Of a DNA stretch of 64,000 nucleotides, positions 12,821 to 35,515 are shown piece by piece. Position numbers and translations under genes: made by a program. Each line of letters opens with the position of its first letter. The first letter of the stretch is position 1. This DNA is from Austropuccinia psidii (lineage: Eukaryota > Basidiomycota > Pucciniomycetes > Pucciniales > Sphaerophragmiaceae): positions 47,138,196 through 47,202,195 of the forward strand of contig JALGQZ010000003.1 of the NCBI GenBank assembly GCA_023105745.1, in the 5' to 3' direction. The notes under the pieces were generated by a model. That model saw only the letters and a program-made list of their open reading frames with translations, searched no databases and was not told where the DNA came from.

Positions 12821-12867
12821 CACCAGGGCAAATCTCGTTTCAATTGTCGGCGATTGACCTCACGTCA
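12821..12867 (+). repeat. Left terminal inverted repeat of the CACTA element
   Basis: Starts CACCAGGGCAAATCT and ends ACCTCACGTCA. It pairs with 35469-35515 with five mismatches, four of them C/T. Confidence 0.92.
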
Positions 12868-12942
12868 AGCAAACGTCAAGCAGGATAAAAGTCTAGCTCA
12901 CGTCAAGCAAAAATCAAGCGAATGTCGAGCACACGTCCTACT
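12853..12942 (+). repeat. Left subterminal repeats (ACGTCAAGC motif)
   Basis: The nonamer ACGTCAAGC or a one-base variant appears about five times in 80 bp (12862, 12872, 12900, then AATCAAGC and ATGTCGAGC). Subterminal short repeats are the binding sites of the second protein in plant CACTA elements; that role here is inference. TGACGTGACGTGAC near 35385-35400 is the counterpart at the other end. Confidence 0.65.
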
Positions 12943-13204
12943 CTTGTCTTACACCAAATCCTGTGACATCCACCAATATTGGTTCCCCTGTGCCTTCAAC
13001 TCAGATTCCTCACCACCTGATCATCCCGAAACCGTCCAATGGTTGGTAAAAATTACACAAGACCCGCCTGTTTGCACAAACACACATCAAAGAGGTCCTT
13101 CAGCCAGTATTGATGTAGGCGGGGGGGTTTGACTTCACCAGGTCATCCATAAAAGGACTCCGCCTGAGCGGGATTGTCGTTTTGCAGGTGACACTGGTAG
13201 AGCC

Positions 13205-13285
13205 CGCCGCACAATACCGCGTGTGCGTGTGCATTGGCGTGTGCAGGTGTGCTTGCATGTGCGGGTGTGGGTGCGCAAGGGCCGC
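13205..13285 (+). repeat. GT-rich simple repeat
   Basis: Alternating GTGTGCGTGTGC-type sequence, imperfect. Lies between the left end and the 3' end of the transposase gene. No gene seen in 12943-13534. Confidence 0.7.
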
Positions 13286-13534
13286 TTCCCCTTCCAACAT
13301 GATGATGGCGCAGTTAGAAATTTTGGATGCTGTGAAAAGTGAGTGTGTGGGTCATTTGATCATTGAACTTGGCTTATTCACACTGTACCCAATGTCAAAA
13401 TAGTAAGTTCTTTGTGGCAATGTGAAATAATGGGCTTTGCTTGTCACAATGGCATGTCTATGTCACTAAATTTTGAGGCAGTTATTTCACTAGAAAAATT
13501 GCTAATGAATCTGGGAGATTTGCATTTTAGTAGA

Positions 13535-16500
13535 CTAAATTTCATGAAATAACGGCTTTATCATTACAAGCAGTCCACATGACAGAACTTTGTTATCATA
13601 CAATCCACAGTTACCTTCTATCTCTTCTTCAGATATAATCAAGTGTCCATCATCAAAACCAACAGCTTTATAAATATTGAGATGCGGCCAATCTGGTAAG
13701 AAATTCACATCAATCTTCAAAGTTTTTAAGATCAGAAAGTTATTGTTCAGTATGCTAGATGGCTCAGAGACTTTAAAAATGCTATTAATAATACCAAATC
13801 GTTGTGAGTTGCCCCTCAGAAAACATATCACACTGTTGCTGACATTTTTGGATTCAGTTGAAAATATATTGTTCCCAATATTAATGTTTGAAACTGGAAA
13901 ATAACAAGGTGAGACAATCCTTGAAGTGGGAGGACTTGTGGATTGCACGGTAGTGTCTAAGCTGATCCAATCAACTATTTCCCTCGTTGCATGAAAATTC
14001 TGTAAGTACTCAACCAGGCAATCATAATTTTCTTGGTCATGGCGGGATGGTTTGTTATATTTATGGTCATTGAACAGGGCAGGTGGCTGTGACTCAAAAA
14101 GCTGTTTTATTTCACATGGCACGGATGGGGATTTCAGGAGAACGGAAAGGTTGGAACCTCGACAGATATGTTTAAGTAAGGTTTTATCTATATCATCTAT
14201 GCAGAGTTGCAAGAAGTTAATCTCATTCAGTTCAGGTGTTTAATCAATGTGAATATATTGATCTTATTAATTGATGTACATATTTTGTTATTTGTTGGCA
14301 TTTTTGCAAATACTCCAATCAAGCGCTCATAAACCCATGTGGCTGAGGCTTGTGCTGGGCCCCAACGTTCGAAGAGTTCCGGAATATGATCAGTAAAATG
14401 ATGATTTGGTTTAATTTTCTGTTTTGGGAACAGGAGTTGATTGGAAAGGCGGAATTTTTTCCAATGTTCAGCAAATGCAGTTGCATCATCTATTGAAACA
14501 GTCCAACTTGTGGCAATGTTGATAGCACTAATCAAATGGAATGTATTCTTGGTTAGTTCATTTGAAAGTTCTTCTGACTGACCCATTTTTCTTTGAGTGT
14601 TCGCGGATTGGTGTACATCTAATGACATCTGTTGACTGAGCATTAAAAATGGAATATAGACCTTATATAAGAGAGCCCATTCAGCGGCTTTTAAGCTACC
14701 ATGAGAGGGGGAACCCATGTTGCAAGGTACTCTTGTCCATGATGAGGGAATTATCATCTCAGATATGATTTGTTGGAGATGCTCCAGAGCCTCACCCTTG
14801 ATCTGGTGATCACTCAGTGCAGTGATATCCAATTCAGTGGGGATGTAATCGGAATCAAATGAAGGAATCTCCGCAGAACCACTAGATGGATGTTCCGTGT
14901 GAGGGGTGGGCATTGGGAAGTAGCTTTTTTGGGTGGAAGTAGTGGGGAGTGGCTCATTTATTATTTTTGCTGTGTCTCTTCTCAGGGAGTGGACCTCTCT
15001 CAATGTGATTTTATCAAGAGAGCTGCTGGAGGTCATGGAATCTGAGTCTGAACTGTTGGTGTCATTGGATTTCCTGCGGGACCTGAGGTAAATTTTTGAT
15101 TTGGACTCTGGAATGCACAATTTGAAAAATGCATGATCCTTCAAAATTCCCAGTATTAAATTATGCATTATGTCAAGATTAACCATTCTGGTTGCATCAC
15201 AATACGGAAGGTCTTCTAAAATTGAATATCACACTCCATACTCAGAGAAAACTGCTTGTCTTTGTTGTGGGGTTGCCCGAAGCCATTTGGCAATGGTTGA
15301 TTTATGATTTTGATATGAGCGTGTGTATGAAATTGAGGACCAATTTCTTCAATTTGAGCTTTGTGAATGGTGCAAAAATTACAAAAGTGGTTGCCTGAAT
15401 GGGAAATAAATCCAGTAAGCTTGCGCATGGCAACCACATCCGCAATGGCTGTGAGAATGGCAACACGGATAAAGGATCCTGAAGGACCTGTTGAGGTGGG
15501 TGAAAAATGGTAACCTTGCCATAGCTCTTTGAGCTCGTTGATGAGTGGAATTAATAAATAATTCAATTGAAGGGAAGTTGGCTCCTTCGGACCAGGGATG
15601 ATTCCTGCAACATAGACATTCTCTGGCTTCAATCTTTCACTTGGGGGGAGATTAAGACAAATAAGCATGATAGGTCCAATGCTGGCCAACCGGGTGGACT
15701 TTCCATGTGCATTAAACCAATCCACATAAATGGAGAAGGCCAATGCACCAGGAATGGACATGAATGGGGGGTCATGGATATTTCTAGTGCCAGTGAAGTG
15801 TCTCCAGAACAATCCATCCCAGACGTCACGTTTTGGGGAATCTTCAGAAGTTTGGGATTGTTGATGTTGATGCAGAATTTCCATAATTCCAGCCCACTGG
15901 AGAAATCTGGCAAGCCAATTTTTGAATGGTTGATAAATGAAATTTTTTGTTGGTATAAATTTTTGCTTCATGTTGGTTGTGCTTTGGGTGTGGGCTTCAA
16001 ATGAATAGATCAATTTGCCTAATGATTGTGTGCAAGGGGGATCATGATCATTTGGGTCATTATGGCATTGACAGTGGGGTTGGTCAGTTGTGACTGATTC
16101 AGTAAGGCCATTAAGAGAGAAACATTGAGGACAACATATATAGTTTTGAATCATTGGTTCCAATTGGAGATGTTCAAATATGGTACTCAGATCTTGAGGT
16201 ATATGGAATGCAGAAGTGGGGGGACCACCTGAGCTTGAGATGCTGGACTTGATCAGCAGGTTTAGGGCGGGGTTGAGAATGCGTGAAGCCCTGCGGGGTA
16301 TATTATACCTTAATGATAGAATGGCAGATATTATCATTCCAAGGTCTTGTGGGGGAAGGGTTTGACTGCTGCTGTATGGTTTCTGTGCAATTTAATTGAG
16401 CCCCAGTGCTGTGGAGAAGGTGCTTTGGGTCAATGGTGAATAATCAGCTGGGAATATTTGATCCAAAAGAAGCTGTGGGCACTCAGATCCTGATGCAGAA

Positions 16501-16655
16501 GTAGGGATGTTTGGAAGAGATTTGGGTGCAATGGTTGATTTGAGCTTTTCAATGTGCTGTTTATATTGGAAAGGTGTGAAGGCAACTCCAGGCCTATCAC
16601 CCTCAGGGGAAGAGCGTGTTTGAGCTGAGCAGTGTTGACACATGCATATACGCAT
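13535..16655 (-). pseudogene. Tnp2-type (CACTA) transposase, broken
   Basis: Transposase of the Tnp2 family (Pfam Transposase_21), which would cut the element ends. Start ATG at 16655 gives an N-terminus with a cysteine cluster (CMCQHC). The core reads MSIPGALAFSIYVDWFNAHG, AGIIPGPKEPTSLQLNYLLI and ISHSGNHFCNFC, then VNLDIMHNLILGILKDHA (15186-15130) and FERWGPAQASATWVYERLIG (14380-14320); these are signature blocks of the family. Lesions: in-frame TAA at 16392-16394; a 2-bp AC insertion in a CA run near 15320-15327 shifts the frame; TGA at 15229-15231 where the restored frame would have an arginine CGA; a further frame change near 14215-14270 that could be an unresolved intron. It is head-to-head with the accessory gene at 17641. 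Confidence 0.9.
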
Positions 16656-17640
16656 TGAGGAATAGCGGCGGGTTGTTATTGTTGCAGGAATTGGGAGTAC
16701 GGTTGGTTTGTGTATAAATATCTATGGCTGATGTGAGAGTGTTTAGGAGTGTTATTAATTGGCAAAAAAATTGAGTGATTATTTATGAAGGGGGAGATGA
16801 TTTGAGCCATCTGAGAATTTTATCCTATTTTTAATGGTGCGTGAGCTGCAGCTGATGGAGTGTAACATGTCTCATCTGGATGGCGGAATTGGTTAGTAGT
16901 TTAATTGGGTAAAATGCCATGCTGCTCAATGCTCATACATATTCTATTTTATTTACACATGGCGATACTGCGGTTTTGACCCTTGAGGGGTGTTCCAATA
17001 GGGATGTGTCAACATTGATTTGAGGGGATTGACATTCAAACCATATACGCTGGCACGCCATCGTACATGGCTTAAACCTTATTACAGACATAACGATATA
17101 GCTCTATTACATAAGGGGTTGGAGTGCAGCTAGAGTCTTGGTATTTGGTTTGAGAGCAGCAGGCTTTTAATCAGTTGGAATGTGATTTGGATTGTCTCGC
17201 CTTTCTTGAAAAGGTGATGTCTCTTTTGTGGGTAAATCCTTCATGAATATACCCCTTTACAGATGTACAATGCTGTGGAATTTCAATGCATATATTGGCA
17301 GTTTGGATAATTCACAAAATGTGACAATGGGGAGGCGGAAATGTTACCAAACATGATTACTTATGGATGATGGGTCCCCTTTGAGATCAAGGAAATATTA
17401 CATTATATGGTGGTAGGCCGTGCCGGGTGGTTTCCGATAAAAGCGGAGGAGCTCAAGAGGAGGCAGGGAGGATTCTCCTAAAAAGAGGCTTATTGGACTT
17501 TCATGCAACACTTAGTTCCAACTATTCATAGAATTTCTCTATTCTAAATTTGAAAAGATTTCATCTCATATCACTCTATTTTATCATAATACTGAGGTGT
17601 TTTATCTAGTTAAAAATATTACTGTACTTTTTCAGCCCTT
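16656..17640. promoter_or_regulatory. Divergent intergenic region between transposase and accessory gene
   Basis: About 1 kb with no credible gene, separating two genes transcribed away from each other, so it should hold both promoters. It contains one copy of the element-wide 24-bp palindrome at 17044-17067. No clear TATA box was assigned. Confidence 0.6.
17044..17067. promoter_or_regulatory. Palindrome copy 1 (upstream of transposase)
   Basis: Half-sites TATACGCTGGCA and CGCCATCGTACA. It matches the pattern of copies at 25139, 29747, 31656 and 34524, with the conserved core GGCRYGCC. It lies 389 bp upstream of the transposase ATG and 574 bp upstream of the accessory ATG. Confidence 0.65.
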
Positions 17641-19702
17641 ATGTCATCTTTCAAGTCACATAAATCCTGTTCAGGTTCTGTTCACGACTCAAATAGTGAA
17701 TCTAGCATAGAATATGTTCAAACACAGTCACCATTGAGTCCCAACATTCCTCTCACAACCCCTATTGCATCCTCAATGAATGTATCAGGTCTTAACATTG
17801 ATGTGGGCAATCCAAAGGCTCCAACTTCAAGCACTTGGTCGATCCCAAATATTTCTGTCACTCCAATTCCCCCGAATTCCACTAATACACAATCGCATGT
17901 GTCTCAGGGGCCAGAAGCCACACCTCAAATCTCATCACATGTTAATCCCCAATCAAAATTTCCACGTGAGTTCCTCCTTAATCCTGGTCGGAATCCAGTC
18001 GCATCCCAGGATCCCTTTGGCCAAAGTAAACAGCCAACCCTCAATATTCCATCAGGATCTCAGGTTCATGTGGGTGATGAAAGGCGCGTGGATGGGGGGC
18101 GACGAAAAAGACCATTGGAGAATGTAACTTGGAGTGGTCTGTCGGAGGGAAATCCAGGATTGACGCTTCATCAAAGTAAGTCATTTGAATTTTGGAGTAT
18201 AACCTTTTTCACAATTTGATATTTTTGTTTCATGGGTTAGATATGGCACCTAATGGCAAGTCAGTCCGATCTCAGGAGCCAATTGAAGATTGTGAGTATG
18301 ACCAGTCTTCATTAATTTTTTGATGTGTTAACTGATGATGTGCATGGCAGGTGATGAACTTTATGCATCTTCACCTCTGGTCCATAAAGAGAAAGTCACT
18401 GGACGTCATCATCCATATGCCTCCAAACCAAGAACAGCTCATGCCAGTTCATCAAGAGAAAAAATAGTGGATGATGAGGATGAGAACATGTCTCCGACTC
18501 AAATGGAAACAAATGATGAATCAAGGAGGGACAATTTCACGGCGCATGAGCATGGCACTCAGTCAAATAATGAGTTCACCCATCCTCAAATGGGCCTTGC
18601 CCAGAGTATGCTTGAACAATCCGAGGTCAGACAGCAAAGGAACCAGGCTCGTAAAGCTCACAATGTGGCGAAACGTGCAAGCCAGAAGGAGCAACAAAAA
18701 TGGCTGAAAGCAGAACTTCCAGAGAATGTCCATGGAATGAGATCAGCAGTACATGCACATTGCCTGTTCCTACTCAAAGTTAGGGATAAGGATTTTTCCT
18801 CACTACCAGCACCACCAAGCACAGAAGAGCATGAAATTGCAATTCAAGTGGCTGGTCATCTCGGATATGTCCCCAAGGATGTTTTCAATGAGCCATCAAC
18901 ACAGGTTCAGTCTCAGGGTTTCCAAAGCTACTGCGAAAATGAGCTCCACAAGCTAGGACTAAAGAGATTCACTCGGGACTGGGAGAGCTCATGGCAACAT
19001 CCGTTCAATGAGCTGATGTCTATGGTGTTTTACCATACATTCCGTCTTGCACTGGTCAGCACCGAGTATCATCATTACTGTTGGAACAAGGATCATAATA
19101 ACTATGGGGTCATGGCGGCTTTAATGGAGCGATATTTCACTTATTTGAAAAGAGAATGGAAGTCTATTCAAAAGGATGCCGAGTATTTGGCTAAAAAGAA
19201 GGAGAATCAAAAGCTCGCAAAGATTTGTCAAAGGGTTAGTTAATGTATCTCTTCTTCATTGTGAGCAAAGACTGATAATGATCTAGTTGATTATGTGCAG
19301 ACATGTGAGCGCCGTCGTGAATGGTGTGATATGGCTAAATTTCCCATTCTAGCATCACAAGTCAATGACCCTCGAGTATGTTCAGATACTGAGGAGGTAC
19401 TGGAAAATGGCCATCAAGTTTACCGCAAAGTGGGATTACGCTGGCACTCCCAGTTATTTAATGAATTGGTATTAAAAATGGATCGAGACATAGAGTTTTG
19501 TAATCACATTAAAAAAAAGTGTAAAAAAACTATTGATAGATTGCCAGAATTACAATCGACAGATGATGGTGATATTCCGGAAGGCTTATCATTTCAGGTA
19601 TTTGATCAAGATTGGATCAAAGGCTGTAGTAAGATGCAGACTAGCGTCCTCAGAATACTTGACATGCCAGTTATTAGGCCAAATGGTTATGCTCTGCAGT
19701 AA
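17641..19702 (+). CDS. Accessory protein of the CACTA element, intact, four exons (623 residues)
   Basis: Exons 17641-18175, 18241-18291, 18351-19234 and 19301-19702, joined by GT-AG introns of 65, 59 and 66 bp; the sum is 1872 nt with an open frame throughout. The N-terminal 200 residues are Ser/Pro/Thr-rich and disordered. From about residue 290 a basic stretch (ARKAHNVAKRASQKEQQKW) leads into a folded-looking helical domain, and the C-terminal part has RRREWCDMA and VCSDTEE with GLRWHSQLFNEL. Proteins of this style sit next to Tnp2 transposases in basidiomycetes (recollection, not searched), in the place of plant TNPA, which binds subterminal repeats. Its biochemical role is unproven. It is the only cargo or core gene here without a visible lesion. 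Confidence 0.75.
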
Positions 19703-20007: not shown

Positions 20008-23000
20008 TCACGCAGTTAATGATTTTTTCTTTTCTTGGACCTATTGGTGTTTGGAAAATGGCATTTCCATAAGGAAGGATTTTAGAATAGCAATACAATT
20101 AGGGTCAAAGAAGATCTTGAAAGGTACCTCCCGCATGTTGACCTCAACTGAATGAGGAGTGATCTAGTGGATGACCTTTACAGGTTGTTGTTGGCCAATA
20201 CGATGGAGTCGATCAACAGCCTGAGCCTCAATGGCTGGGTTCCAATTGGGCTCCTGGAAATGTGGATGTCAGGGGCCGCAAATCAGGGCAGAATTTTGGG
20301 GGTCCCCTCACCATTAAATAGACCATATTAGCACAAGTTATATTGAGGCCAGTTCCAGCTGCGGCAATGGATGCAATCAGTACTTCACATTCAGGATTAT
20401 TGAAGAAATTCTCCAGTGCCTTCTCCTGTGCTCGTGCTGTAATTGTTCCATCAATTTGTGCTGAAAGGATAGAGTGATGGGCAAGTGCAATACCAATTCT
20501 ACAATATGAAAAAGTCAGATGGATTCAATTGGTAATGGATGCATATTAGAATTAACGCACAAATCTAGAAATTGGGTCCATTGGGTATAAACCACCAATT
20601 TGGTTGGACCACACCTTGTGTAAGGTTTGTCTATGAAACTCTTGATAATAGTAACAATATCAAGAGTACTATGACTGTCCTCAGTAGAAAAATACAATAT
20701 AATGAAATATTATAACCACAAATTTAAATATAATTATTAAAAATAATTATATAAAAAATAAATTTAATTATTATTATAATAATATAATAATAAAAAAAAA
20801 TATAATAATTATAATAAATTATAATTATTCTATTATTGTTATAGTCACTGACAGTTATAACAATAAGAAGTGTAAAGCTCTTAATGAGACAATTACACGT
20901 GGAAAATAAGAATATTAACCACTTATAAATAATATAAATATTATTTATAAAAAGAATTAATCACACACTGTGCAGAAATAATTCTTTATAGAATAAAATT
21001 CTATATAAAAAAACTAATAATAGATAAAAAAAATATAGAACTTTAAAGAAAACTTACTTATAATATTTATTTAATACAACAAGTTATAAAACAACAGTTA
21101 TTATATTAAATAATGATTATAAGTTAAAAACACGCCAAAAATCAATAAAATCAAAGATAAAACAACTTTTTATACTAAAATTTATGATTGAACAGTTTTT
21201 GAGAGGAATTTGTGGATTTTAAAAGATATTTAAGATGATAATTTTATATAATAAAAGTTATTATAGATGATTACAACAATAATCTGAATTCTATGACTTC
21301 AATTCTTTAATTTAATAAATAAAGAATAAAAATAACTTAAGAATTACTTTTAATAATAAGATTTTATATTTAATAAAACTTTACCTGTTTAAATGTCTAA
21401 TATGATTGGATTGATTATGAATTATGGACAAAAACAGTGATGAAAAGACTCTTTTTATGTCTACAGAGCAGCTCTCATGATTCATAATGGATGTAGAGGG
21501 CGTGCTCAGGTCAAAACTGAAAAACCATGCTTAAAAATTAAGTTCTTAACTTAAGGCAACTTATTTTTACTTCCAATTTAAAGTTACCAGTGTTATTCTT
21601 AACTCCAAGTAACTTTAATCCTCATTTAGTTTAATTATTTTAAGTTTTAATATAAAATAAGTTTATTTATATTGACGTTCATCACATGAACAACTTAAAA
21701 TTAGAGGTTCACACAGAAATCTCTTAAACTCAATTTTGAATTAATTTTTTAAAGAAATTATAATTTTCTTTGAGCTTAATTAAAAGAGTAAATTTCCAGG
21801 CTAATTACCCAGGATGTTTATTTATTAAAGATACTTAAAATTTAATTTATACATAGATAATATTGAATTGCAAGCTGTGTGAAATTACAAGCAAATCCAT
21901 TAAGATTTGGATTTTTAATGAATTTTTGAAGTTATTACTATTTTTCCACGTAAAATAGCAATACACACAAAACCTTAAGTTTTGATAAGGTTTTGATGAT
22001 TGAAACCTTAAAGTTTTAAGCTTATTTAAGTTTTTTAAGCTTGATTAAGCTTTGACAGTTCTTAAAACCTTGATTCCAAGCCTGCTTATTGGGATTTACC
22101 CTCTTGGCAGCTTGAAATTCCTGTCCAATTTAGGATAAAACCAGTTTAAACCTTAAGGTTGGATCAAAGTCTAATCTTAAAGTTTAAATAAGGTTGAAAA
22201 TCCTCCAATACAGGTGGACAACCTTAATTGAATCCTTGCAGATCCAAAAAGTTGGGTACCCCAGCTCTATTTGGTCTTTTTCCTTTGTCCCACCTTTTTG
22301 CGTGGATTTTGCCCTTTTATTTATTTAAAGCCATACTATGGCCTTAAACCCTTTTAAATTGAGCTCACGCAGGATTTACATTCTGTATGGCAAATCCTTA
22401 GCCAATTCAGTAAATATACACCACACCTTAATTTTAACTAAAATTTTGGTAAGGTTGCATAAACCTTATGTAACTTTAAATTTAAGCTTAATTAAGCTTA
22501 AATTTAACAATTTTAAAAAAATGTTAAAAAGTTACATTAGTACTGTGAGATTCTTAAATCTTCTAATAACACAAGAAATAAGTGTTTTTGGGTATAACAC
22601 CCTATGGGTGTACCCTAGGTTATTTTTGGTGTAGAATCCAAAAATGACATAATAATTATAACTTTGTTTATCCAAAAAAAAGTTATACTTATTTTTTATT
22701 ATTTTTTATTTTAAATTCAACTAAAAAGTCTGTTTAAGACAAATTTAATTGTTTATAAAATCATTTGTGGCCTTATGGGTATGTTAAACATACCTCACAG
22801 GCTCACACCTTGTTTGTTTGTTATTCATTATGCTTTGTAGGAGGTGTGCAATTTTACTACTCATCATGCATGTTTCCACATCCACAATAGTTCTTGTGAT
22901 TGTTGGCGAGTTATCCTGAGTGCTCCTGCCCTCGGGGTCTTCCAAATCCGCCTCCGCAATTGTGTTAAGCATGATGTGATAGTTACAACATATTCGCAGC

Positions 23001-24635
23001 TTATTAATATTTCTGAAAGCTTCTCCTGGTCCTTTGCTTTTGGATGATAGGAATTCTTCATATAATATGGAATATTCTTGCTGCATGGTTGGGTTGAGTG
23101 GGAGAAGCTCATAATGATGGCTAATGGTGGGTAGGGATTCGAGATGTGTGGTTTTGGTGCGGCGCAAACTTAAATGCCGCAATTCCAAATGCAAGATATC
23201 ATTGCAACCTTTGGAAATACTACTCAGGATGAATGGTGACCAGTTATCTTGATCGGCGCTCTGGGGTTGAGTGATGAATGATATTATGCCCAAAAGGTCA
23301 TAAATGGTGTTGTGAATAGGTGTGCCCGTTAAACATATTTGATGGGATGAAAGGAGGCTATTAATGGCACGGTGAGTGGCAGTGTATTGAGAGTGAATAT
23401 AGCTATAAGATGGGGAAAGGGGTATTGGATATAAAAGGTAATTTGAATCATTTAAGATCAGACACTCACTGTGCTTCATCCAAAATTATACGATGCCAAT
23501 TGATTTGAAAAATGAATGATGTAGAGGTATTGGTTTGCTTAAATTCTTGGGTGATAGTATTGTAAGAAGTGATGATGATATCATATTTTAAGATGTCGTC
23601 TTTGGATAATGAGTGACGAGTGGGACCATGGTAGATTTTGGAATGCAGCACTCCAGCCTGAGCATGCTTGGATATTTCTGATTGCCAGTTGGTAATTAAG
23701 GGAGGGGGGCAGATGATCATGGTGGGCGTGGAGCGATGGGGGTTTGCAATCATCCACTCCTTGGAGGTACTAATTAGAGCAATGGCCTGAATGGTTTTAC
23801 CTAATCCCATATCATCTGCAAGCAGTGCTCCAAGAGGGGTATTGGTCGAAAGGGATTCAAATGAGCTAACGACCTTGTTTGTAATGATGTGCCTGGCATT
23901 GAAAGTGGATCCTGGGGGTGAGGTGGCCCAAAGGTTACGGGCTGATTGGCCATTGGGGATTTCTCGATCCCAGAGAAAAGCTAGTCTGGTCTTTTGATGA
24001 GGGAGGAGGGGGGTTTGAATAATGGCATGGGGCGGGGTCATCATGAGGAGGTCTGATCCACTGGTTAATTGTATCAGTTTTTGCTTGGAAATCAATGATG
24101 AAACAGCAGGATATGAAACTGGCGTCGAGCTTGAAGCGGGAAATGTTGGAGTGAAGAGTTGACATTGACTATGAGTATTACAGTCATATTCTTTGGGCAT
24201 TTTAAGCTTGAAATCTTGTGTTCGAAAGCTTTCCATTATGAATAAAATGTTTGGATACCATGTGAAGAGCATCAATGCTAGATTGGGTTTCTGAGATGAG
24301 GAGGGATCATTTGCATCAGTCATAAATACTCCCTCAACGAATAATATTTGAGAAGGATTGGATTGGCAATTTTCAATCCATGCCCCACCAGGACCACAGT
24401 GCATGAAAGTTTTTGGTGCCCCAAGGAATGGTATCAACGTTTTGGAAAGGGTTCCAGGTAGAGAGCCAATAGCATGCTGGTGATTGGGGAGATAAACAAA
24501 TATGTGGTGTTGATTGTGCCATATGATAATCCAAGAAGCTAAGTGGGAATCCTCAGGATTTAAGGCTATATCACTATTTATTTGAATACGGATATTAATC
24601 ATCCCAATGCAAAGTGGCTGTGAAGGGGTTGACAT
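20008..24635 (-). pseudogene. SNF2/RAD5-RAD16-type ATPase gene, split by a solo LTR
   Basis: ATP-driven DNA translocase of the SNF2 family that would remodel chromatin. ATG at 24635. Exon 1 is 24635-23470 with the Walker A motif DDMGLGKT at residues 274-281; intron 23469-23403 (67 bp) splits the DEAH box, which reads correctly once spliced; exon 2 has CLTGTPIHN (motif III). A 2189-bp solo LTR interrupts exon 2. Beyond it are VVYTQW (motif IV), an intron 20560-20499, IASIAAAGTGLN (motif V), an intron 20311-20254, [20 protein letters not shown] (motif VI), an in-frame TAG at 20164-20166, an intron 20127-20041 and a short last exon ending with TGA at 20008. Helicase lobes are complete apart from the insertion and the nonsense codon. 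The N-terminal 250 residues resemble no domain I recognise. Confidence 0.9.
20619..22807 (-). mobile_element. Solo LTR of family A inside the SNF2 gene
   Basis: 2189 bp from TGTAAGGTTTGTCTATGAAA to CCTCACAGGCTCACA, flanked by the TSD CCTTG (20614-20618 and 22808-22812). Its first 100 bp align with the LTRs at 37428 and 45790. It is very AT-rich and non-coding. Removing it with one TSD copy restores an open SNF2 frame, which fixes the insertion point to the base. No interior remains, so the full element was lost by LTR recombination. Confidence 0.93.
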
Positions 24636-25138
24636 GATGGCTATTTTAAATTATTTGGGGACAGTTGGAAATTATATGATTGGGAGGGGTTAGCTAAACG
24701 GAATGAAGACAAATAGGTGCAGGTGGGGAACTTATATGAGAGGCAGCAATGGGGTCAAGGGGGGATGGCCTGTGGTTACGTGCATGGTCTTGATGGGGGT
24801 GGGCCTCTTGGGCTCATAATTTTCATATCCGATTTGGGGCATATATCAAGGCAAGGTGGCCAAAATGTGGGTGCACCAATATGACTGCTGGATCTGCAGC
24901 AAGGTACAAAACCTTTGGTGGAACAAGGTTGACATTAGCATATCCGAAATTGGGTGGGTTGTAGCAACTTATTGTGGAGGGCATATTAGAGGCATGCAGT
25001 CATGTTTGCTGGTGTGACAGCGAACATGGATGCATATCTTTCCCAGGTTAATTGTCACACAGGGACCTACTGGGAAATGTTGGCCGTTTCAAAGGGCAAT
25101 CTCACTGTGGGGATGTTTGTGTGTGGGCGGGTGAGATA

Positions 25139-25162
25139 TGTTTGGTGGCATGCCACCCAACA
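25139..25162. promoter_or_regulatory. Palindrome copy 2 (upstream of SNF2 gene)
   Basis: Half-sites TGTTTGGTGGCA and TGCCACCCAACA, an almost perfect dyad. It lies 504 bp upstream of the SNF2 ATG. Confidence 0.7.
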
Positions 25163-26123
25163 TGACTTTGGTTTTGCCTGAAGTTTTTTGCTGACTGATG
25201 CCTACTGGGCTTCCGGGGGGAATGTGTGGGATGATCAAAGGGGGTTCCAGCCGTGAGCTGTGATCCACATATACATTCACCCCTATTGCGTTTGAGGCGA
25301 GTACTAATCCACCGAGATTGGCATCCGGGTCTTTGCCTCACGCGCATAAAAAACTCTGGCGAAAGAGGCCACCCACCCAAGGGAATTTTTGGCTGCAAGC
25401 CAGGTGCCACAACTTGCGCGGGGTGTGTAAGAACGTGAAGAAAATGACCCGCAGTGGGAGATACCCACGCAAACATAACCAGCCTCAGCAAACATGCGCT
25501 GGGATTATTCTAATGTGGATGAGGCTGAAGCAAATCCACACTGATTGGCCTCAGGTTTCCACGGGCGAGCAGGTGAGCGTCTGCAGTCAAGCTGACCACC
25601 CGACCAAGAAACTAGCCGGTCGGAACACTGGCAGTAAAATGTCTTCCAGGAGTGTGAAAGCTGCCTGTGTATGACCCGTTGGGGGGTGCGTATGAAAGCG
25701 TGTGGCTGCCCAACAATGAGCACGCGCAATGAACAAGCAGGGCCAGTCATTGTTTGCCCCGACAATGGCACCGGATGGAATCCACTGTTTGTGTATGACC
25801 CAAATAAACAGTCATCCCACCATGACCCACTTACATTAACTTGGATTACATGCGCATCTGTGCCATAGTTAGGCAGAGCTGTCAAACAAGGTGCATCAAA
25901 GGGATGCAGGTGAGAGATATGACTCGATGGCTTGACGTGATTGCATGTTACATTGTTGAACAGCTTTTGCTCTGCCCCACAGCATACATCTACAATGTTG
26001 TACTGCGTACTACGGTGTTGGCTGTACAGATTAGGAAGGTGTAATACTACTTGAGCCTGCATGCATATAGCGAATGTGCATGCACCTTCCGATTCTTTGC
26101 ATATACATAGCTCATGTTCCACA

Positions 26124-26879: not shown

Positions 26880-26889
26880 TTCACCATGG

Positions 26890-26896: not shown

Positions 26897-27319
26897 GACC
26901 ATCTTCACACAACACGCCCTTCACTTTCTTTCTCACCCGCTCCACTTCTTTCAACCTCACCCGCGTTTACCCTTCTTGTGCGTATTCCCCTTGGTCTTCC
27001 TGCCTTTCTACTTTTGTCTTTCGCATTCCACTAAACCCACTCCCCTTACTTTTGCCTGTTTGTTTCTTCTGCTGATCCTTTCAGAACCTCCCTTCTATCC
27101 ACCTCGTGCATTACCTCTTTTTTTAACTTTTGTCAACATTATGTACCGATATTAATACTTATTTTTCTTCACCGCTCTTTTCCAGACTTTTAAAAACTTC
27201 CGACTAGAGCGTTCTTATTTTGTTTCCGTTTTAAATCTCTAATTCATTGTACGTCTTCATTTTTTCTCTTGATTGTTTACTTTGTATGCAGTTACTAACC
27301 TCAATTGTTTTGTTTTTAG

Positions 27320-28702
27320 ATGTTGTGCACTTTATGCACCAAGCGGGGTATCCCCTGCATTCGTTCCTCGACGACGAACAATGCTTGTGATGCTTGGCGA
27401 CAAGCACACAAGAAATGTTTGTTTGTTGTCCGCCCCTTCCGACCACAAGGCCAGAGGAGTTCCTGCCCAAGACTCCCTTGCGAGGACTCTTTTGTGGTCG
27501 ACAATGATGAAACCATTTCCGAGCGTGAATGGACGCCGGGCCCCCAAACAGGCCAATGGGAACGATTCCGGACGATTAGCCGTGTCCCCTCTAGTATTGA
27601 TTTGTCCACTCCCCCTCCTAGGCCACCATCCGATGGTCACTTCACTCCTCAACCGGAGCGAAGTGATTATCCGGCCAATGAAGGATGGGGATGGCGAGAG
27701 GACATTCGAGCTTGGGCTGATCGTCACCATGTCTTGTCACCGATGGGATTCAAACGCCAAAGTAAGTTTTCTTTCTCCTCCTTATCTCATTTCTCTTCAC
27801 GCAATAATACTGACTTTTTTCCATTACTCATAGAACAAAACCCCCCAAATCTCCCCCGACATGACTCTCCCGTTCCTAGTTTGCCTCGCAAGCAAACCCC
27901 CCGGCAACCCACTCCAGGCCGGAGTGGCACCCGATGGTCTGAGGAATTATTCCGCGGTAAGCAGCCAAAGTTTCATTTCATTTTCACTTTCACTTTTGAG
28001 TCGAGTGAACTGACTCTTACTCCTTTTTTAGAACCCTCCTGAACCCAAGAGCCACCTATTCCTGGCCCAAGTCTATCGTCCCAACCACCTGAGGACAATA
28101 CGGCTCGTGAGCCAGAACCTGAGGTGGCTCCTACGCAATCCACGGAGGAACCTTATGGTAAGTCACCCCTTCTTTCTCTTTGATCCATATCCACTTTTCC
28201 TCATTTTTTCTTCGACTGTCTCCAGATTGTCCCGCCACTCCTCGCTCGATAATCATCATCGACAATATGCCTGTCGGATCCCCCCATCCCCCTCCCCCCC
28301 CCTTCTTCTTCACCGACTCCACCATCTTCCCCTCCTGTTCCCCCTCCCTCCACTCCTACCCCGGTTCCTTCCCAGGATCTCCCTCCCATTGCCCCCGAGA
28401 ACCCAACCTCCTCCTCCCCCCCGGTGCCAAGCTCCTCTCATTCCCACGATGACGCTCGCCAGGAATTCACCGACCTGGGACCGACCCTAATGATTCCTCG
28501 AGCCATCGTCCACAAATCGATCAACCAAATCTTGTTGGAGCATCGCCGCTTGCTCCACATGATTCCTTTCGTGGATGCAACTCATCGAAATGAGATGCAC
28601 TGGGAATTCCGGGAGGAACTAAACTCCCTCCTTGCCCAGGCACTGGAGGCTTATCCAAAGGAGGACATCACTGGGATAGTCTCGAAATTCTTAGAAAAAT
28701 AA
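27320..28702 (+). pseudogene. Cysteine-rich, proline-rich protein gene, broken
   Basis: Begins MLCTLCTKRGIPC and continues to ACDAWRQAHKKC about ten residues later: a C-X2-C-X6-C followed by a C-X2-C-X6-C-like block in which the second cysteine is a tryptophan here. This resembles a zinc-binding Zn2Cys6-type cluster. Exons 27320-27761, 27834-27956, 28032-28157 and 28226-28702 are separated by GT-AG introns of 72, 75 and 68 bp. After the third exon begins there is an in-frame TGA (28040-28042), and a frameshift lies in the C-run of the proline-rich part (about 28281-28310). The last 90 residues are a helical, conserved-looking domain (PRAIVHKSINQILLEHRRLL). The family is abundant in rust genomes (recollection). 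A gag-like or DNA-binding role are both possible; function unknown. Confidence 0.65.
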
Positions 28703-29117: not shown

Positions 29118-29710
29118 AGTTGTCTGGAACCTTCACAAGCGTAAGGATTGGCGTGTGACTTGTCGGGAGGCTGCACAGGCGTAAGTATTGGCGTGTGAAT
29201 TGTTGGGAGCCTGCACAGGCATAAGGATTGGCATGTGAATTGTCCGGAGCCCGCACAGGCATAAGAATTTGTCAGCGCTGTTGGCAACCTTCCCAAGCGT
29301 AAGGATTGGCGTGCGAATTGTCGGAAGCCTGTACAGGCGTAAGGAATTTTTAGCATTTTTGGGACCCTTCACAAGCATAAGGATTGGCGTGTGAATTGTT
29401 GGGAGCCTGCACAGGCGTAAAAATTGGCGTGTGAATTCTCGGGATCCTGCACAGGCCAAGAAATTTTCAGCATTGTGGGGAACCTTCACAAGCGTAAGGA
29501 TTGGCATGTGAATCGTCGGAAGCCTGTACAGGCGTAAGGAATTTTTAGCATTTTTGGGGACCTTCACAAGCGTCAGGATTGGCGTGTAAATTTTTGGGAG
29601 CCTGCACAGGCGTAAGGATTGGCGTGTGTAGCGTCGGCACCCCGCATAGGCGTAAGGAACTCTTAGTATTGTTGGAACCTGCACAAGCATAAGGATTCGC
29701 GTGTGAAGAA
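29118..29710. repeat. Minisatellite 1 (40-bp units)
   Basis: About 15 imperfect tandem units; two consecutive units at 29171 and 29211 are exactly 40 bp apart. The unit core is GGCGTAAGGATTGGCGTGTG followed by AATTGTCGGGAGCCTGCACA; a variant unit carries AATTTTTAGCATTTTTGGG. Open frames across it on the minus strand are repeat artefacts. Confidence 0.85.
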
Positions 29711-29746
29711 TTGGCGTCCTGGACAATAGCAACAAACCAGGACAGA

Positions 29747-29770: not shown

Positions 29771-29875
29771 TAATCCACTTCACGCCATCTCCCGCACTCG
29801 AATCCATCCAATCCTGGTGTATATTGTCCTCTGCCTTACCCCACCATTACTTACCCAACACACATGCAAATCTCC

Positions 29876-31087
29876 TCATTCTTTGAATCGGCATGAGATT
29901 GTATTACCATCCCTGATTTGATAGCCCGCTCTCTCGCCAATCTCATAATAGCCATGGTTTTTTTGCCGCATTGTTTTTGCTAACCTGCTTGAGCATTGTG
30001 CGGACATACCCACTAGTGTCATGCTTTCCTTGTCCTGTGCTGGATCAGTATAATGAACAAATGTACTACTGGCCCACACTACCTGAATGAGCCCATGACA
30101 TGCGGATACATCAATCCAAAAATGCTCATTTGGGAAAATCAATTTTCCACCTGTACACCGCTTTGACGCATCTCTTTGAATTTGGGCGGTCCGCTTATCA
30201 GCTTGAAACCACCATCCCGAAGCATACAGCGATGCATCCTTATCAACATGAGGTGCGTTTTTGAATCCATTCATGGTGAAAGTGAGTGCGGAAGCGAACT
30301 CAAATGCACCCCGATTTGCCGGAATATTGCCTTCATAGTTGACTTGATCAAAAGACAGAACCCCCAATGAATTGTAGAAATTTTGAATCTTCTCAAATAA
30401 ATCATCCCCAACATATCATAAGGATTGACCTATAATGCAGCCCACTGAGCTAAGATTGGCACCTTGGTTCTGCCATTCATCTTTTGCATTTTCAATTTTC
30501 CCAACACTTCCATACAGACCAAATTGTTCATTCTTCGTGCTGCATTTGCGCCACCCAATTGCAAACATAAATCCCTCCAGTAATGCTCCATTGGTTGCAA
30601 TCGGGTCGGTGAATCTATTTTCGCAAAATAAGAATTGTGATAATTCATCCCATTGATTGACCTCAACTTCACTCATTGTTGTCAATGGTCGGAATTCAAC
30701 AAGGGCAATGAGTAATCCGGTTGAAGTGAAAATTGCCACACGGCCAAAGTGAATGCGTTTGATCTGATTGACATCCACAACCCTCCGAATTTCACTTGGG
30801 GTGATATTTGTTGATACTGGGATTGATATTTGTGCTGTTGGGCAATAGGAGGAAAACAACCTATTCATTCGGGTCGTTTTGCGCTCATTTGTCTTTTGGG
30901 ATCTGCTACTATTCCCGAGTGGTTGAGGGATCACTATGTGTTGAAGCACACAAGATATCAGATACTGCCAAGGAGCTTTCTTCGGCACACATCCTTTGAC
31001 TTCCCTGTTGGAGCCCACATGACATTGGCTCAATCTGAACCGACTAAAGCCAATGTTCTTCCGTGGGGCCCAATGAGGGTGCCACAT
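29876..31087 (-). pseudogene. TET/JBP-like 2-oxoglutarate/Fe(II) dioxygenase, one nonsense codon
   Basis: Predicted to oxidise methylated or modified pyrimidines in DNA, as TET and JBP enzymes do; the family is known to be expanded in basidiomycete transposons. ATG at 31087 opens a frame of 404 codons broken only by TGA at 30416-30418 (residue 224), explicable as CGA to TGA. The domain in the C-terminal half shows GAFEFASALTF, then HVD at residues 280-282 as the metal-binding HxD, GWWFQADKRT, CTGGKLIFPNEHFWIDV, CHGLIQVVWASSTFVHYTD (candidate distal histidines at about 331 and 345) and YYEIGERAGYQIRDG. A TA-repeat (31101-31125) just upstream of the ATG may act as a TATA region. Confidence 0.85.
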
Positions 31088-31100
31088 AAATGTGGAAGCA

Positions 31101-31125
31101 TATATATATATCTATATATATACAC
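31101..31125. repeat. TA-rich simple repeat
   Basis: ATATATATATCTATATATATAC-type run, 14 bp upstream of the dioxygenase ATG on the minus strand. Confidence 0.6.
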
Positions 31126-31679: not shown

Positions 31680-31965
31680 ATTACTATTGGTACTCAGACT
31701 GTGGAATCCGGGCAGTAGTAGGATAGGAAGTCATGATTATTAAATTCATAAATCACTTTTCAAAATTAAATTACAATCTATCTAGTACAAAGCTAATCTA
31801 AAACGGGTCAATCCTGGTTGTGAGTATAGCTGACCTGGGTACCATCAAGGTGACCTCATCACTTGAACCAAGACCGCGTTTCGCCACCCAGGCATCACCA
31901 AAGTCTAATACTAAGCATCGTGCAAATTCAAATCTAAGAGGTACAGTGGGGTTAAAAGACTCTTA

Positions 31966-34021
31966 TGAGAAGAAACTTTTATTCAGTAAATTACATATAT
32001 ACTTATTAGTACGTAGCCACACTGGCTCCACTAGATTTCTACCCTCTGAAAGTTTTGCGGAAATGTCAATTAGTGATAAAGCCCCTTTAACTGAGCTTGT
32101 TCTCCAGTCATCTGAGCATACCATTGAACCACGAACCCCCGCCGCTAATATACCAAAGCAAATTTGATTTATTCCGAGATTCTTGTGACACGCCAAAAGA
32201 TATTTGATGGCCTCATTTTTTTTTGAGTTCGTGAGTTTGCCTTTGATGCCATTAACTTCGACCTTTGTATGTGCACGTACCATGTTGTACGCAATCATCA
32301 AATGGATAACTGTATCCATTAGATCCTCCAGGTTCTTGTGCGGCTTTGTGGATATCTCATTGTCAGCCCCGCCACTTTCAATGATGAGTTGGGTTGCATG
32401 TTGCTTCAATTTACTCAAGCAGGAGGAAAGGTATTCAACTGCTCCCCATTTGAGTCCAAGAGGATCGGTCAAATTTGATGTTGGTGCAACATATGGTTTG
32501 GGTGCAACCACATTGTATGAGACTAAACTAATGGATTTAAACATAACATTTGCCCAAAAATGTTTAACTGGATTGGCGGGGTAAAGAAGGCTCTGAACCA
32601 TTTTGAAGAAGGAGTGTTCAGATTTTGGGAGATTCTCTGGAGGTTTAGCTGATTCCTTCATCAATTTGAGATTCCAAATGTTGTGATCAAAAAACGCTTC
32701 TGTTTTGGTTGGCTTGAAAAAATCTAACCCTGTATATTGCAATTTATATCACCAGTCAACAGCCAATAATCATATATCATGCACAAAGATAAAACTCACC
32801 TGCCCTCTCAAGGTCCTCCAGCCAGGCCGACATTTTAAGCTCTCGGTTACTGATCACCTTAATACCAACAGGCAGGAATGTATGAGCATCTTTTGTTGGT
32901 AAATTGTCCCATCGATTTTTGTAAATACTATTGATATTATCAAGCCCCCTTTTCCATGATTGTTGAGTAATATTGGAATGATAATTCAAAACGCCTGCAA
33001 ACTCTTCCATGCGGGATAAAAATATTCCTTGAAAATTAGCAGACAATGACACTTTGCACTCAGGGTCAGGAACTATATCAGTCATATCTCGTCCCATTGT
33101 ATCATGTTTAATTGTTTCCCTTTCTTGAAAGGCTTGAATATTGCGAGGAGAGGTGGGAGGGGTTGCATCATGCATTGTTTCATTGGGTATCGGGGGGCTT
33201 TCAGTATGTGGAGCTTCATCATGGATTGTTTCATTGAGTATTGGGGGGGTTCAGTATGCGGAGGTTGATTATCAATATGGTCCCCTTCAACATTGATAAT
33301 TTCATGACCTTGATAGCGAGAATCGCTTGCGGCTTCAAAGGTACGGTGTTTTTTGTTTGTTTTTTTGGTCGCATGTATATTTGGTCTTTTTCCTAATCCT
33401 TTGCCTGGAAATCCAATTACGACTGGAGATCCTTCAGGTAGAGATTCTCCCACCTCCACACCTACCCATATATTGTAAGCAGCTATTGTTATCAACTTTG
33501 TTTTGAATTAGTAATGGACTTACGGTTCAAATCCATTTTGAGCAGGCTCATGGCTTCAGCAATCTTTTGACGCACATAATCAGGAATTTTACTATCATTT
33601 TGGATTTTTTCGAGCCTTGGGATTGTTTGAGCCATGTTGGAGACAAATTGCTCCTTGGATATAATTTCCACCTCCCCACTGAAAATTACATCATCTTGCC
33701 CATCATCTTCTGTCGGTGCACAAGGTTCAACAGTCTTTTCCTTCTCATAACTTTTAAAATTCGGTTTCTGAGAGCTTGGAGGCTGACCTGAAATAAAGGC
33801 TATGACACAATATCAGGTTTTGGGAGATTAGAAATATTCAAGATGGATGCATACTCACATTCTGGAAGAACTGGGGGATCTTGATTATCTTCATGTGACT
33901 GGCTCTCTACTTCAATGCCTAAATCACGACTACTGGCGATATCAGAGATTTCACTTCCACTCTCTGGGGCTGAAGTTGGTCGTTCATTGAATTCAGTTGA
34001 ATTTCCCGGGGTTTGGGCCAT
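31966..34021 (-). pseudogene. Unidentified multi-exon cargo gene, probably frameshifted
   Basis: ATG at 34021 (MAQTPGNSTEFNERPTSAPE). Splicing with GT-AG introns near 33860-33793, 33522-33465 and 32806-32737 joins exons 34021-33865, 33790-33525, 33464-32807 and 32736-31966. The N-terminal half is acidic, serine-rich and disordered; the C-terminal 250 residues look folded (FWANVMFKSISLVSYNVVAP, LIIESGGADNEISTKPHKNL, GVRGSMVCSDDWRTSSVKGA). A frameshift in a G run near 33241-33250, within a short duplicated segment, probably breaks it. I do not recognise the family; the position beside the dioxygenase, on the same strand, suggests a linked role. Confidence 0.55.
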
Positions 34022-34559
34022 AGCGGAGGTAGTTTATTAAGCAAATAGATGGTGACGAGTTGATTGATAACTTGTTTGAAAATTTTTGAATAAAAAGATC
34101 CAAATTCAAGAAAAAAGGTGCAAGTAAAATAATCGCATTTGCAAAATGCGATTTGTCGGGAAATTGAAGGAGGTGATGTTTTGCAAATTATTTCATATCA
34201 TGCAAATGAAATCACTTCCCTGTGAGACATTGAATAAAGTTGACTAGTGAGAAACCTACTAAAGTCAACCTTTGAACTATTCAACGCTCATGAGGTAAGG
34301 ACTAAGCAAAGTGTTCCATTCGAATGATATGAAATAAAATGGTTTTGTCGGCAAAACAGGAGACAAAATTCTCTTGTCTTAAATAGTCCACTTATTAGGT
34401 TTTAATTTGTGAGTCTCATGATTTAAACCCTAACCAAAACATTGTGAATATACTGACCAATTTCCCCTTAGGTCCTGTTGGCAGAGAAGGCCACTCAGCA
34501 TATTTCGGCGATTGCCTTCATTGTGTACGCCAACAAGCCACCATACACTATGGATGTAG
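34022..34559. other. Intergenic region upstream of the unidentified gene
   Basis: About 0.5 kb without a gene; contains palindrome copy 5 near its right end and presumably the promoter of the minus-strand gene. Confidence 0.45.
34524..34547. promoter_or_regulatory. Palindrome copy 5 (upstream of the unidentified gene)
   Basis: Half-sites TGTACGCCAACA and AGCCACCATACA; the outer arms are conserved but the centre is degraded. It lies 503 bp upstream of the ATG at 34021. Confidence 0.6.
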
Positions 34560-35175
34560 TACGGAAGCGTAAGGATAAGTTGTGTTGGGAGAATGTTGAG
34601 AGGCACTCCGCAAGCATAAGGATAAGTGGTGTCGGGAGCATGTCGGGAGGGCACCACACAAGCGTAAGGATAAGTGGTGTCGGGAGCATGTCGGGAGGGC
34701 ACCACACAAGCGTAAGGATAAGTGGTGTCGGGAGCATGTCGGGAGTGCACTCCGCGAGCATAAGGATGGTAGGCATGCCTCGTCGACAATTTTCTATGGC
34801 TACACGGTTTAAAACTATGTTTAGATCAAACGGTTTGATGTCATATAGAGTATGTATTAAACCAGATAGGTCCCAGTCCTGACTAAGACTTCTGATGAAG
34901 AATGCTGCGGCTAGCAGTGTCAAGAGGATGTCGGGAGGGCACTACACAAGCGTAAGGATAAGCAGTGTCGGGACCATGTCGGGAGGGCACTACACAAGCA
35001 TAAGGATAATTGGTGTCGGGAGCATGTTGGGAGTGCACTCCGCGAGCGTAAGGATGGTAAGCAGTGTTGGGAGCATATCGGGAGGGCACTTGAGCAAGCG
35101 TAAGGATAAGTGATGTCGGGAGTGCACCACGTGAGCATAAAGATGGTATGGGCGGGGGTGTGAAAGCATAAGGAG
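34560..35175. repeat. Minisatellite 2 (48-bp units)
   Basis: Tandem units with exact 48-bp spacing at 34636, 34684 and 34732; the array resumes at 34925-35170 after a 130-bp non-repeat spacer. Core CAAGCGTAAGGATAAG with GTGTCGGGAGCATGTCGGG. It shares GCGTAAGGAT with minisatellite 1 and lies within 1 kb of the right end of the CACTA element. Confidence 0.88.
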
Positions 35176-35468
35176 TGGTGAGGACGGAGATGGGGGGGCA
35201 GTGTCGGAGTCTCACCTGGAGGGCAGTGCGGGCTCGTAAGCATGCGAAGCATTGGGGCGGATTAGGTGGGGATGCGGAAGCCAATGAGGTGAAATTACCC
35301 GAACATTGTGAATAGTGTTGAAATGGGTTTGGGCTTTGAGTGACATTCTCATGTGACACATGTGACAATTGACGTTGTCTTGACGCTGACGTGACGTGAC
35401 CCACTAAATCCAGTGACTATAAAGTGACACTAACGCGACTGAAGCAAGATTTTATACTGACAGCGGTG

Positions 35469-35515
35469 TGACGTGAAGTCAATCGCCGACGATTGACGCA
35501 AGATTTGCCCTGGTG
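35469..35515 (-). repeat. Right terminal inverted repeat of the CACTA element
   Basis: Reverse complement starts CACCAGGGCAAATCT and ends CTTCACGTCA; followed by the TSD AGA at 35516-35518. Confidence 0.92.

What the first reader, a model, noticed from the sequence alone, without database searches (positions are those of the whole stretch)
12821..35515. A 22.7-kb CACTA-type transposon carrying six genes
Exact 47-bp inverted ends starting CAC, a 3-bp TSD (AGA) and a Tnp2 transposase define it; both host halves join in frame once it is removed. CACTA elements usually carry a transposase and one accessory gene. Here about 15 kb of extra genes, palindromes and minisatellites are enclosed by the same ends. 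This would be a cargo-carrying giant DNA transposon of rust fungi.
Basis: partly seen in the sequence, partly recalled or inferred. Interest (0 to 1): 0.92.

Follow-up and report, generated by a model that had tools for sequence, protein, structure and literature searches.

The report
Multi-gene CACTA transposon of a rust
A jumping gene of about 20,500 letters in a rust fungus carries, besides its own cutting enzyme, genes that look able to loosen packed DNA and strip silencing marks, and the other copies sampled from the same genome carry the same package.

Summary
The element is real. It runs 12821-35515, with CAC..GTG ends and an AGA/AGA duplication. The ends are not exact: 42 of 47 bases match. 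It sits in an old Ty3 polyprotein, not a host gene, and an uninterrupted paralogue of that site lies in the same window. A 2,189-bp solo LTR in the SNF2 gene explains part of the length; without it the unit is 20,501 bp.

Host: Austropuccinia psidii or very close (inferred), in a 1.015-Gb assembly. Six copies chosen by left end alone all carry Tnp2, ORF2 and SNF2 in the same order; TET is in view in 5, CALP in 5. All 3 with a right end in view have perfect 3-bp duplications. A 28-bp terminus matches 2,720 places (up to 2 mismatches; control 0).

So the genes are the family's own. TET-bearing CACTA in rusts is published (PMC12730594); that text does not mention SNF2. Likely role, inferred: a TET-like oxidase plus an SNF2 remodeller against methylation silencing. 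The window copy is decayed. New variant of a known kind.

The parts
12821..12867 (+). left terminal inverted repeat (CAC...)
   Evidence: 42 of 47 match to the right end; E 5.9e-10
35469..35515 (-). right terminal inverted repeat (...GTG)
12818..12820 (.). target duplication AGA, left
   Evidence: present once in the uninterrupted paralogue at 63370-63368
35516..35518 (.). target duplication AGA, right
12862..12905 (+). subterminal ACGTCA repeats, left end (3 copies)
   Evidence: 7 of 11 ACGTCA sites in the element lie in its terminal 150 bp, inverted at the two ends
35370..35474 (-). subterminal ACGTCA repeats, right end (4 copies)
13535..16721 (-). Tnp2 (CACTA/EnSpm) transposase, broken in this copy (at least one in-frame stop and one frame change)
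   Evidence: PF02992 E 1.7e-15; relatives, tblastn; C(2)C, H(3-4)H, ERLIG motifs; another copy has an open 836-aa frame
17614..19702 (+). ORF2, protein of unknown function, next to the transposase in relatives
   Evidence: model of pLDDT 57 only, mostly helical
20228..24650 (-). SNF2-family helicase gene (N half 22784-24650, C half 20228-20612), split by a solo LTR
   Evidence: PF00176 E 2.9e-29 and 2.6e-12, PF00271 E 1.7e-6, DMGLGKT; continuous over the LTR site in 3 MF-1 proteins
20617..22805 (.). solo LTR of a Ty3 element, 2,189 bp, nested in the SNF2 gene, TSD AGGTG
   Evidence: absent in 5 of 6 sampled copies, 6% covered in the other
25137..25163 (.). palindrome around GGCATGCC; related ones at 17043-17068 and 29746-29772
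   Evidence: in this window GGCATGCC occurs inside the element only (4 sites)
27273..28702 (+). ORF4, candidate gene with a Cys-rich N-terminus
   Evidence: no Pfam family; 68-100% covered in 5 of 6 copies, at the edge of view in the sixth
29120..29707 (.). minisatellite 1, unit about 40/78 bp
   Evidence: shares the unit AAGCGTAAGGAT with minisatellite 2
29876..31111 (-). TET/JBP-like 2OG-Fe(II) dioxygenase; domain interrupted by one in-frame stop in this copy
   Evidence: PF20515 E 4.1e-24 and 1.7e-10 on the two pieces; HVD and VHYTD motifs; an open 418-aa frame in another copy
31963..34033 (-). CALP, several frames of unknown function; one has a CDC24-calponin match
   Evidence: PF06395 E 8.6e-8; no PDB relative at E<=1; in view in 5 of 6 left-end copies
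34565..35148 (.). minisatellite 2, 48-bp unit, near the right end
8821..12820 (+). left half of the old Ty3 target (start of the scanned flank, not the true start), itself interrupted at about 9626-12100
35516..37426 (+). right half of the old Ty3 target
63189..63558 (-). uninterrupted paralogue of the target site

Best explanation
This is one decayed copy of a high-copy CACTA/EnSpm DNA transposon family of the myrtle rust Austropuccinia psidii (or a very close relative). The family unit is about 20.5 kb, with CAC..GTG ends and 3-bp target duplications. It carries its own set of about six genes: Tnp2 transposase, ORF2, an SNF2-family remodeller, ORF4, a TET/JBP-like dioxygenase and CALP. Shown: the structure, the shared gene order in the sampled copies, the duplications, the number of matching ends, and the empty site. 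Inferred: it moves by cut-and-paste with its Tnp2 transposase; ORF2 and/or CALP act as helper DNA-binding proteins on subterminal repeats, as TNPA does in plant En/Spm (recalled); the TET-like enzyme oxidises 5-methylcytosine on the element while the SNF2 protein opens its nucleosomes, so that the element escapes methylation silencing.
For: Structure. Empty site. Family: the best 40 scored left-end matches (of 3,194 first-look candidates) are all full length (1-700), 39 of them non-self at 93-96%; the best 40 TET-stretch matches (of 3,239) are near full length, the 39 non-self ones at 96-97%; 6 of 6 left-end copies have Tnp-ORF2-SNF2 in order and 3 of 3 with both ends in view have TSDs AAT, TGT, ATA; termini 2,720 within 2 mismatches, control 0; right-type termini 1,481 within 1 mismatch, control 0. 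Linkage in another A. psidii assembly: Tnp and ORF2 adjacent in 5 contigs, null mean 0.23 and 0 of 5000 trials as high. Third-position excess in SNF2 against older diverged copies but not in adjacent non-coding DNA. 5mC is preferentially on TEs in A. psidii, and CACTA is its most abundant TE superfamily after Ty3 (PMC12774611, passages). Kojima 2025 proposes anti-silencing for transposon TET genes (PMC12730594).
Against: No protein activity or expression was tested. Within the family, substitutions show no consistent codon-position bias: of 24 tests two reached p<0.05, a third-position excess in Tnp (3/6/12, p 0.0498) and the opposite in ORF2 (6/2/0, p 0.03). That fits neutral decay after a burst and gives no support for selection on the other genes. 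SNF2 selection rests on 3 decayed loci: summed differences by codon position are 78/62/96, 107/91/150 and 53/47/71; only one single-segment test reached p<0.05. A diverged TET+ Tnp2 family in the same genome shows no SNF2 or ORF2 hit, so SNF2 is not needed by every TET-bearing element. SNF2-ORF2 adjacency in MF-1 is only 2 contigs (111 of 5000 trials as high) and Tnp-SNF2 adjacency 0. The window copy has a broken transposase, TET and SNF2 gene, and 7 of 8 copies examined lack the 836-aa transposase frame.
Confidence: 0.62

Rival explanations
1. The extra genes are passengers: a CACTA element that captured host genes (Pack-CACTA style, recalled) and hitch-hiked them to high copy number without function for the element.
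For: No consistent codon-position bias between copies within the family; ORF4 has no recognised domain and ORF2 no confident fold; 7 of 8 copies lack the 836-aa transposase frame; a TET+ relative shows no SNF2.
Against: SNF2 exon 1 stays open at 394 aa in 5 of 8 copies and in many listed genomic matches; an 836-aa transposase frame and 412- and 418-aa TET frames stay open in some copies; third-position excess in SNF2 versus diverged copies; TET genes recur in at least two very different Tnp2 families here and in seven transposon lineages of rusts (PMC12730594).
Confidence: 0.25
2. Composite by nested insertion: a small CACTA element into which other elements and genes were inserted in this copy only.
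For: A solo LTR is nested in this copy, and other copies also have large nested insertions, e.g. between Tnp and ORF2 in one.
Against: 6 of 6 copies chosen by left end share Tnp, ORF2 and SNF2 in order, and two copies with both ends in view and all genes present are 20,507 and 19,972 bp against 20,501 bp here without the LTR.
Confidence: 0.02
3. The SNF2 and TET genes serve the host or act genome-wide rather than locally, e.g. by altering methylation of all repeats; the element spreads for other reasons.
For: In mushrooms oxidised 5mC is found on retrotransposons too (PMC12730594, section 4.2), so TET action may not be element-specific.
Against: High copy number and decay of most copies fit selfish genes better than host genes (inference); Kojima argues likewise.
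Confidence: 0.1

Closest known systems
TET+ EnSpm (CACTA) families of Puccinia striiformis and relatives (Kojima 2025, PMC12730594; parts 1-5 of 7 read)
   Same: CAC..GTG ends, 3-bp TSD, EnSpm-type transposase with C(2)C and H(3-4)H, weak Plavaka similarity, TET gene, rust hosts; related EnSpm families also reported from A. psidii
   Different: the main text does not mention SNF2 (0 occurrences), and I saw no multi-gene 20-kb unit described; gene lists are in Table S1, which I could not read
Enlarged EnSpm families of the red alga Chondrus crispus (cited in PMC6431247; one passage seen)
   Same: 16-20 kb CACTA elements with 4-5 ORFs
   Different: different host kingdom; gene identities not given in the passage
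KDZ transposons with TET/JBP (Kyakuja-Dileera-Zisupton)
   Same: fungal DNA transposons that carry TET genes
   Different: 7-8-bp TSDs and another transposase lineage (PMC12730594); here 3 bp and Tnp2
Starships of Ascomycota
   Same: large fungal elements carrying many genes
   Different: tyrosine recombinase (abstract in a search listing); here Tnp2 with TIRs and a fixed own gene set
JBP2 of kinetoplastids (recalled, no call)
   Same: combines a TET/JBP oxygenase with an SNF2 domain
   Different: one fused protein of the host; here two separate genes of a transposon

Membership tests
CACTA/EnSpm | CAC..GTG termini with TIRs | tested here: met
   47-bp TIR, 42 of 47; same in 3 of 3 copies with both ends in view, 39-43 of 47
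CACTA/EnSpm | 3-bp target site duplication | tested here: met
   window AGA; copies AAT, TGT, ATA, 3 of 3
CACTA/EnSpm | Tnp2 (DDE) transposase with C(2)C and H(3-4)H motifs before the last E | tested here: met
   PF02992; CNFC, HHFTDH, ERLIG in order; the assignment of the catalytic residues is by eye
CACTA/EnSpm | subterminal repeats bound by a helper protein | tested here: inconclusive
   ACGTCA clusters at both ends; binding not testable
CACTA/EnSpm | cut-and-paste movement | not testable with these tools
   insertions polymorphic between strains were not examined
TET+ EnSpm of rusts (PU-type TET) | TET/JBP dioxygenase domain inside the TIRs with an HxD..H triad | tested here: met
   PF20515, HVD and VHYTD; HxD speaks against the PE type (HxE); PU against AG was not tested by tree
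KDZ | 7-8-bp TSD, KDZ transposase | tested here: not met
   3-bp TSD, Tnp2 domain
Plavaka | Plavaka transposase over the Pfam cut-off; TGT..ACA or CATCA..TGATG ends | tested here: not met
   PF18759 just under the cut-off, 26.0 against 26.3 bits, with PF02992 at 59.3 against 28.6 (another copy); ends are CACCA..TGGTG
Starship | tyrosine recombinase captain | tested here: not met
   none among the Pfam matches of the 30 frames scanned (27 of them inside the element); the remaining smaller frames were not scanned

The most novel reading that the evidence does not exclude
The element encodes a two-part anti-silencing machine, an SNF2 remodeller plus a TET-like base oxidase (a split counterpart of kinetoplastid JBP2, recalled), and this allowed a 20-kb multi-gene cut-and-paste transposon to reach the order of a thousand or more copies in a heavily methylated gigabase genome.
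Probability: 0.33. Interest if true: 0.82.

Novelty: new variant of a known kind. Interest (0 to 1): 0.62.

Why it matters
Most cut-and-paste transposons carry one or two genes. Here a six-gene unit of about 20 kb belongs to a high-copy family (2,720 matching termini) in a gigabase rust genome. It makes testable whether transposons can carry their own chromatin-opening and methyl-removing enzymes and so drive genome expansion. The sampled copies share a fixed gene order and the species has published methylation data (PMC12774611), so open and broken copies can be compared directly.

Tried and rejected
Rejected: exact 47-bp ends (42 of 47); host-gene target (it is Ty3); nested-insertion composite; Plavaka, KDZ and Starship membership (see table). 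Linkage of Tnp to SNF2 by neighbouring locus tags in A. psidii MF-1 gave 0 adjacent pairs; most of those contigs look too short to decide. A selection test within the family gave no consistent codon-position bias. A first SNF2 test against diverged loci counted overlapping alignments twice and was replaced. The structure model of ORF2 was too poor to search (pLDDT 57). PDB sequence searches for the C-terminal TET piece and for CALP gave nothing. The CDC24-calponin label for CALP was not found in the CALP-like frame of a relative, so I treat CALP as unknown. The 2014 PNAS paper on TET/JBP and transposons in fungi (recalled) is not held. A right-end DNA search did not complete, nor an SNF2 DNA search. 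Loci L009 and L010 were fetched and not used.
Full report
1. The observation. The window holds an insertion at 12821-35515 with CAC..GTG ends and AGA on both sides. The ends match over 47 bp at 42 positions; the unbroken identical run from the tip is 15 bases, so 'exact' is wrong, but the pair is far beyond chance (E 5.9e-10). ACGTCA repeats cluster inside both ends in inverted orientation: 7 of 11 sites in the element lie within its terminal 150 bp.

2. The target. The flanks are the two halves of an old Ty3/Gypsy polyprotein. Joined, they continue in one frame, but that frame is itself broken at the eighth codon after the join. The same window holds an uninterrupted, diverged paralogue of the site on the minus strand, 63558-63189: the left flank aligns to it up to base 12820 and the right flank from base 35516, and AGA occurs there once. 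This is direct evidence of one insertion with a 3-bp duplication.

3. Anatomy. Left to right: Tnp2 transposase (-), ORF2 (+), SNF2 helicase (-), a palindrome-bearing stretch, ORF4 (+), minisatellite, TET/JBP-like dioxygenase (-), CALP (-), minisatellite, right end. The transposase has C(2)C, H(3-4)H and ERLIG motifs in order, the TET piece an HVD and a downstream VHYTD, the SNF2 piece DMGLGKT (which of these are catalytic is recalled or read by eye). A 2,189-bp solo LTR flanked by AGGTG sits inside the SNF2 gene; without it and one duplication the element is 20,501 bp. Its two ends match the ends of the LTRs of the neighbouring Ty3 element at 68-76%. Three A. psidii MF-1 proteins run on over that site (P0023, P0097, P0117). 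In this copy the transposase (at least one stop and one frame change), the TET domain (one in-frame stop) and SNF2 are broken, so it is a relic.

4. Host. The listed relatives of the SNF2, Tnp2 and ORF2 pieces (best 120 each of 265, 275 and 436 hits at E<=0.001) are named as proteins of Austropuccinia psidii MF-1, except one unnamed row; best identities are 94, 93 and 95%. The window's assembly has 1,015,390,075 bp in 84 contigs, close to the gigabase size in the title of PMC8063080. In A. psidii, CACTA is reported as the most abundant TE superfamily after Ty3, and 5mC is preferentially on TEs (PMC12774611, passages only).

5. Is the gene set the family's own? The left 700 bp gave 3,194 first-look candidates; the best 40 were scored, all full length, and the 39 non-self ones are 93-96% identical. 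The TET stretch gave 3,239 candidates; the best 40 include 39 non-self at 96-97%. All six contain Tnp, ORF2 and SNF2 in the same order and strands. TET is in view in 5 of 6, mostly deleted in one of these; CALP is in view in 5 of 6, with only its edge in one. The remaining copy has a large insertion that pushes the rest out of view. Right ends fall in view in 3 of 6, with lengths 20,507, 17,476 and 19,972 bp, TIR matches 43, 39 and 41 of 47, and duplications AAT, TGT and ATA: 3 of 3 perfect. A seventh copy, chosen because Tnp2 and TET hits lie 12.9 kb apart, is 90-94% identical over the parts that align and has open 836-aa Tnp, 456-aa ORF2 and 418-aa TET frames; CALP and a right end are not in view there. 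The solo LTR is absent in 5 of the six and 6% covered in the other, whose SNF2 gene is split by a different insertion.

6. Copy number. A 28-bp terminus matches 2,720 places with up to 2 mismatches, 0 for the reversed control. The right-type terminus matches 1,481 places with up to 1 mismatch, control 0. The two counts overlap, because the end types differ at few positions. I infer on the order of a thousand or more copies and tens of megabases if most are near full length; the sampled copies are the best matches, so this is not a random sample. TET genes as a whole are very abundant here: 7,498 first-look candidates, the best 150 scored and all over the cut-off. Among the 150 best Tnp2 and 150 best TET matches, 17 pairs lie within 30 kb (random placement mean 1.5, maximum 8 in 500); 14 of these are in opposite orientation. 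I fetched one of those 14: it is a much more diverged Tnp2 family (38% and 25% on two transposase pieces), has TET (31% and 28% on two pieces) and a weak CALP-like match (23%, E 3e-5 in a small database), and shows no ORF2 or SNF2 hit. So TET is shared between Tnp2 families, and SNF2 may be lineage-specific (one relative only).

7. Selection. Within the family (5 to 7 copies per segment), differences show no consistent codon-position bias. Of 24 tests two reached p<0.05: a third-position excess at shared non-CpG sites in Tnp (3/6/12, p 0.0498) and the opposite in ORF2 (6/2/0, p 0.03). This is as expected after a burst and does not support selection on SNF2, TET or CALP. Against three older, decayed loci, SNF2 differences by codon position sum to 78/62/96, 107/91/150 and 53/47/71 (sums of the segment rows), with the third position highest each time, while adjacent non-coding DNA gives 94/73/78 and 94/83/89 (two of the three loci; the third gave no match). 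This is modest evidence for past constraint on SNF2; one of the eight segment tests reached p<0.05. In MF-1, Tnp and ORF2 genes are neighbours in 5 contigs (null mean 0.23; 0 of 5000 as high), SNF2 and ORF2 in 2 (111 of 5000 as high), Tnp and SNF2 in 0 (120, 119 and 119 of 120 listed rows for Tnp, ORF2 and SNF2, because rows without a tag or contig were dropped).

8. Mechanism. Shown: a Tnp2 element with its own gene set, inserted with a 3-bp duplication, with ends at high copy number. Inferred: cut-and-paste movement; ORF2 or CALP as helper proteins at the subterminal repeats; TET oxidising 5mC and SNF2 opening nucleosomes to resist silencing. The anti-silencing idea for transposon TET genes is Kojima's (PMC12730594, parts 1-5 of 7 read); the added SNF2 component is what this element contributes.

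9. Known or new. CACTA with TET in rusts is in print, and related EnSpm families are reported from A. psidii. Enlarged CACTA with 4-5 ORFs is in print for a red alga (PMC6431247, one passage). I found no mention of SNF2 in CACTA elements: 0 occurrences in the main text of PMC12730594, and none of the titles or abstract openings listed describes it. Apart from PMC12730594 the papers of those listings were not opened, and Table S1 and Repbase were not readable, so this is no proof of absence. Verdict: new variant of a known kind.

Noticed in passing
37428-47710: A younger Ty3/chromo LTR retrotransposon with 97.3% identical LTRs of about 1.9 kb and an open 1904-aa frame lies just beyond the right half of the old Ty3 target.
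   Followed up: partly
47913-49578 and 56054-57701: A 90.7% identical direct repeat pair of about 1.65 kb, perhaps the LTRs of another retrotransposon.
   Followed up: no
9586-10175 and 11508-12097: A 93% identical 590-bp direct repeat; the Ty3 matches of the left flank stop near 9625 and resume near 12101, so this may be the repeat pair of another small nested element.
   Followed up: no
29120-29707 and 34565-35148: Two minisatellites of the element share the unit AAGCGTAAGGAT, which occurs nowhere else in the window; role unknown.
   Followed up: partly
L032-L033: A second, very diverged Tnp2 family with a TET gene in opposite orientation and a weak CALP-like match, without detectable SNF2; 14 of 17 Tnp2-TET pairs have this orientation.
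   Followed up: partly
whole genome G000: TET/JBP-like domains are extremely numerous (7,498 first-look candidates, 150 scored).
   Followed up: partly
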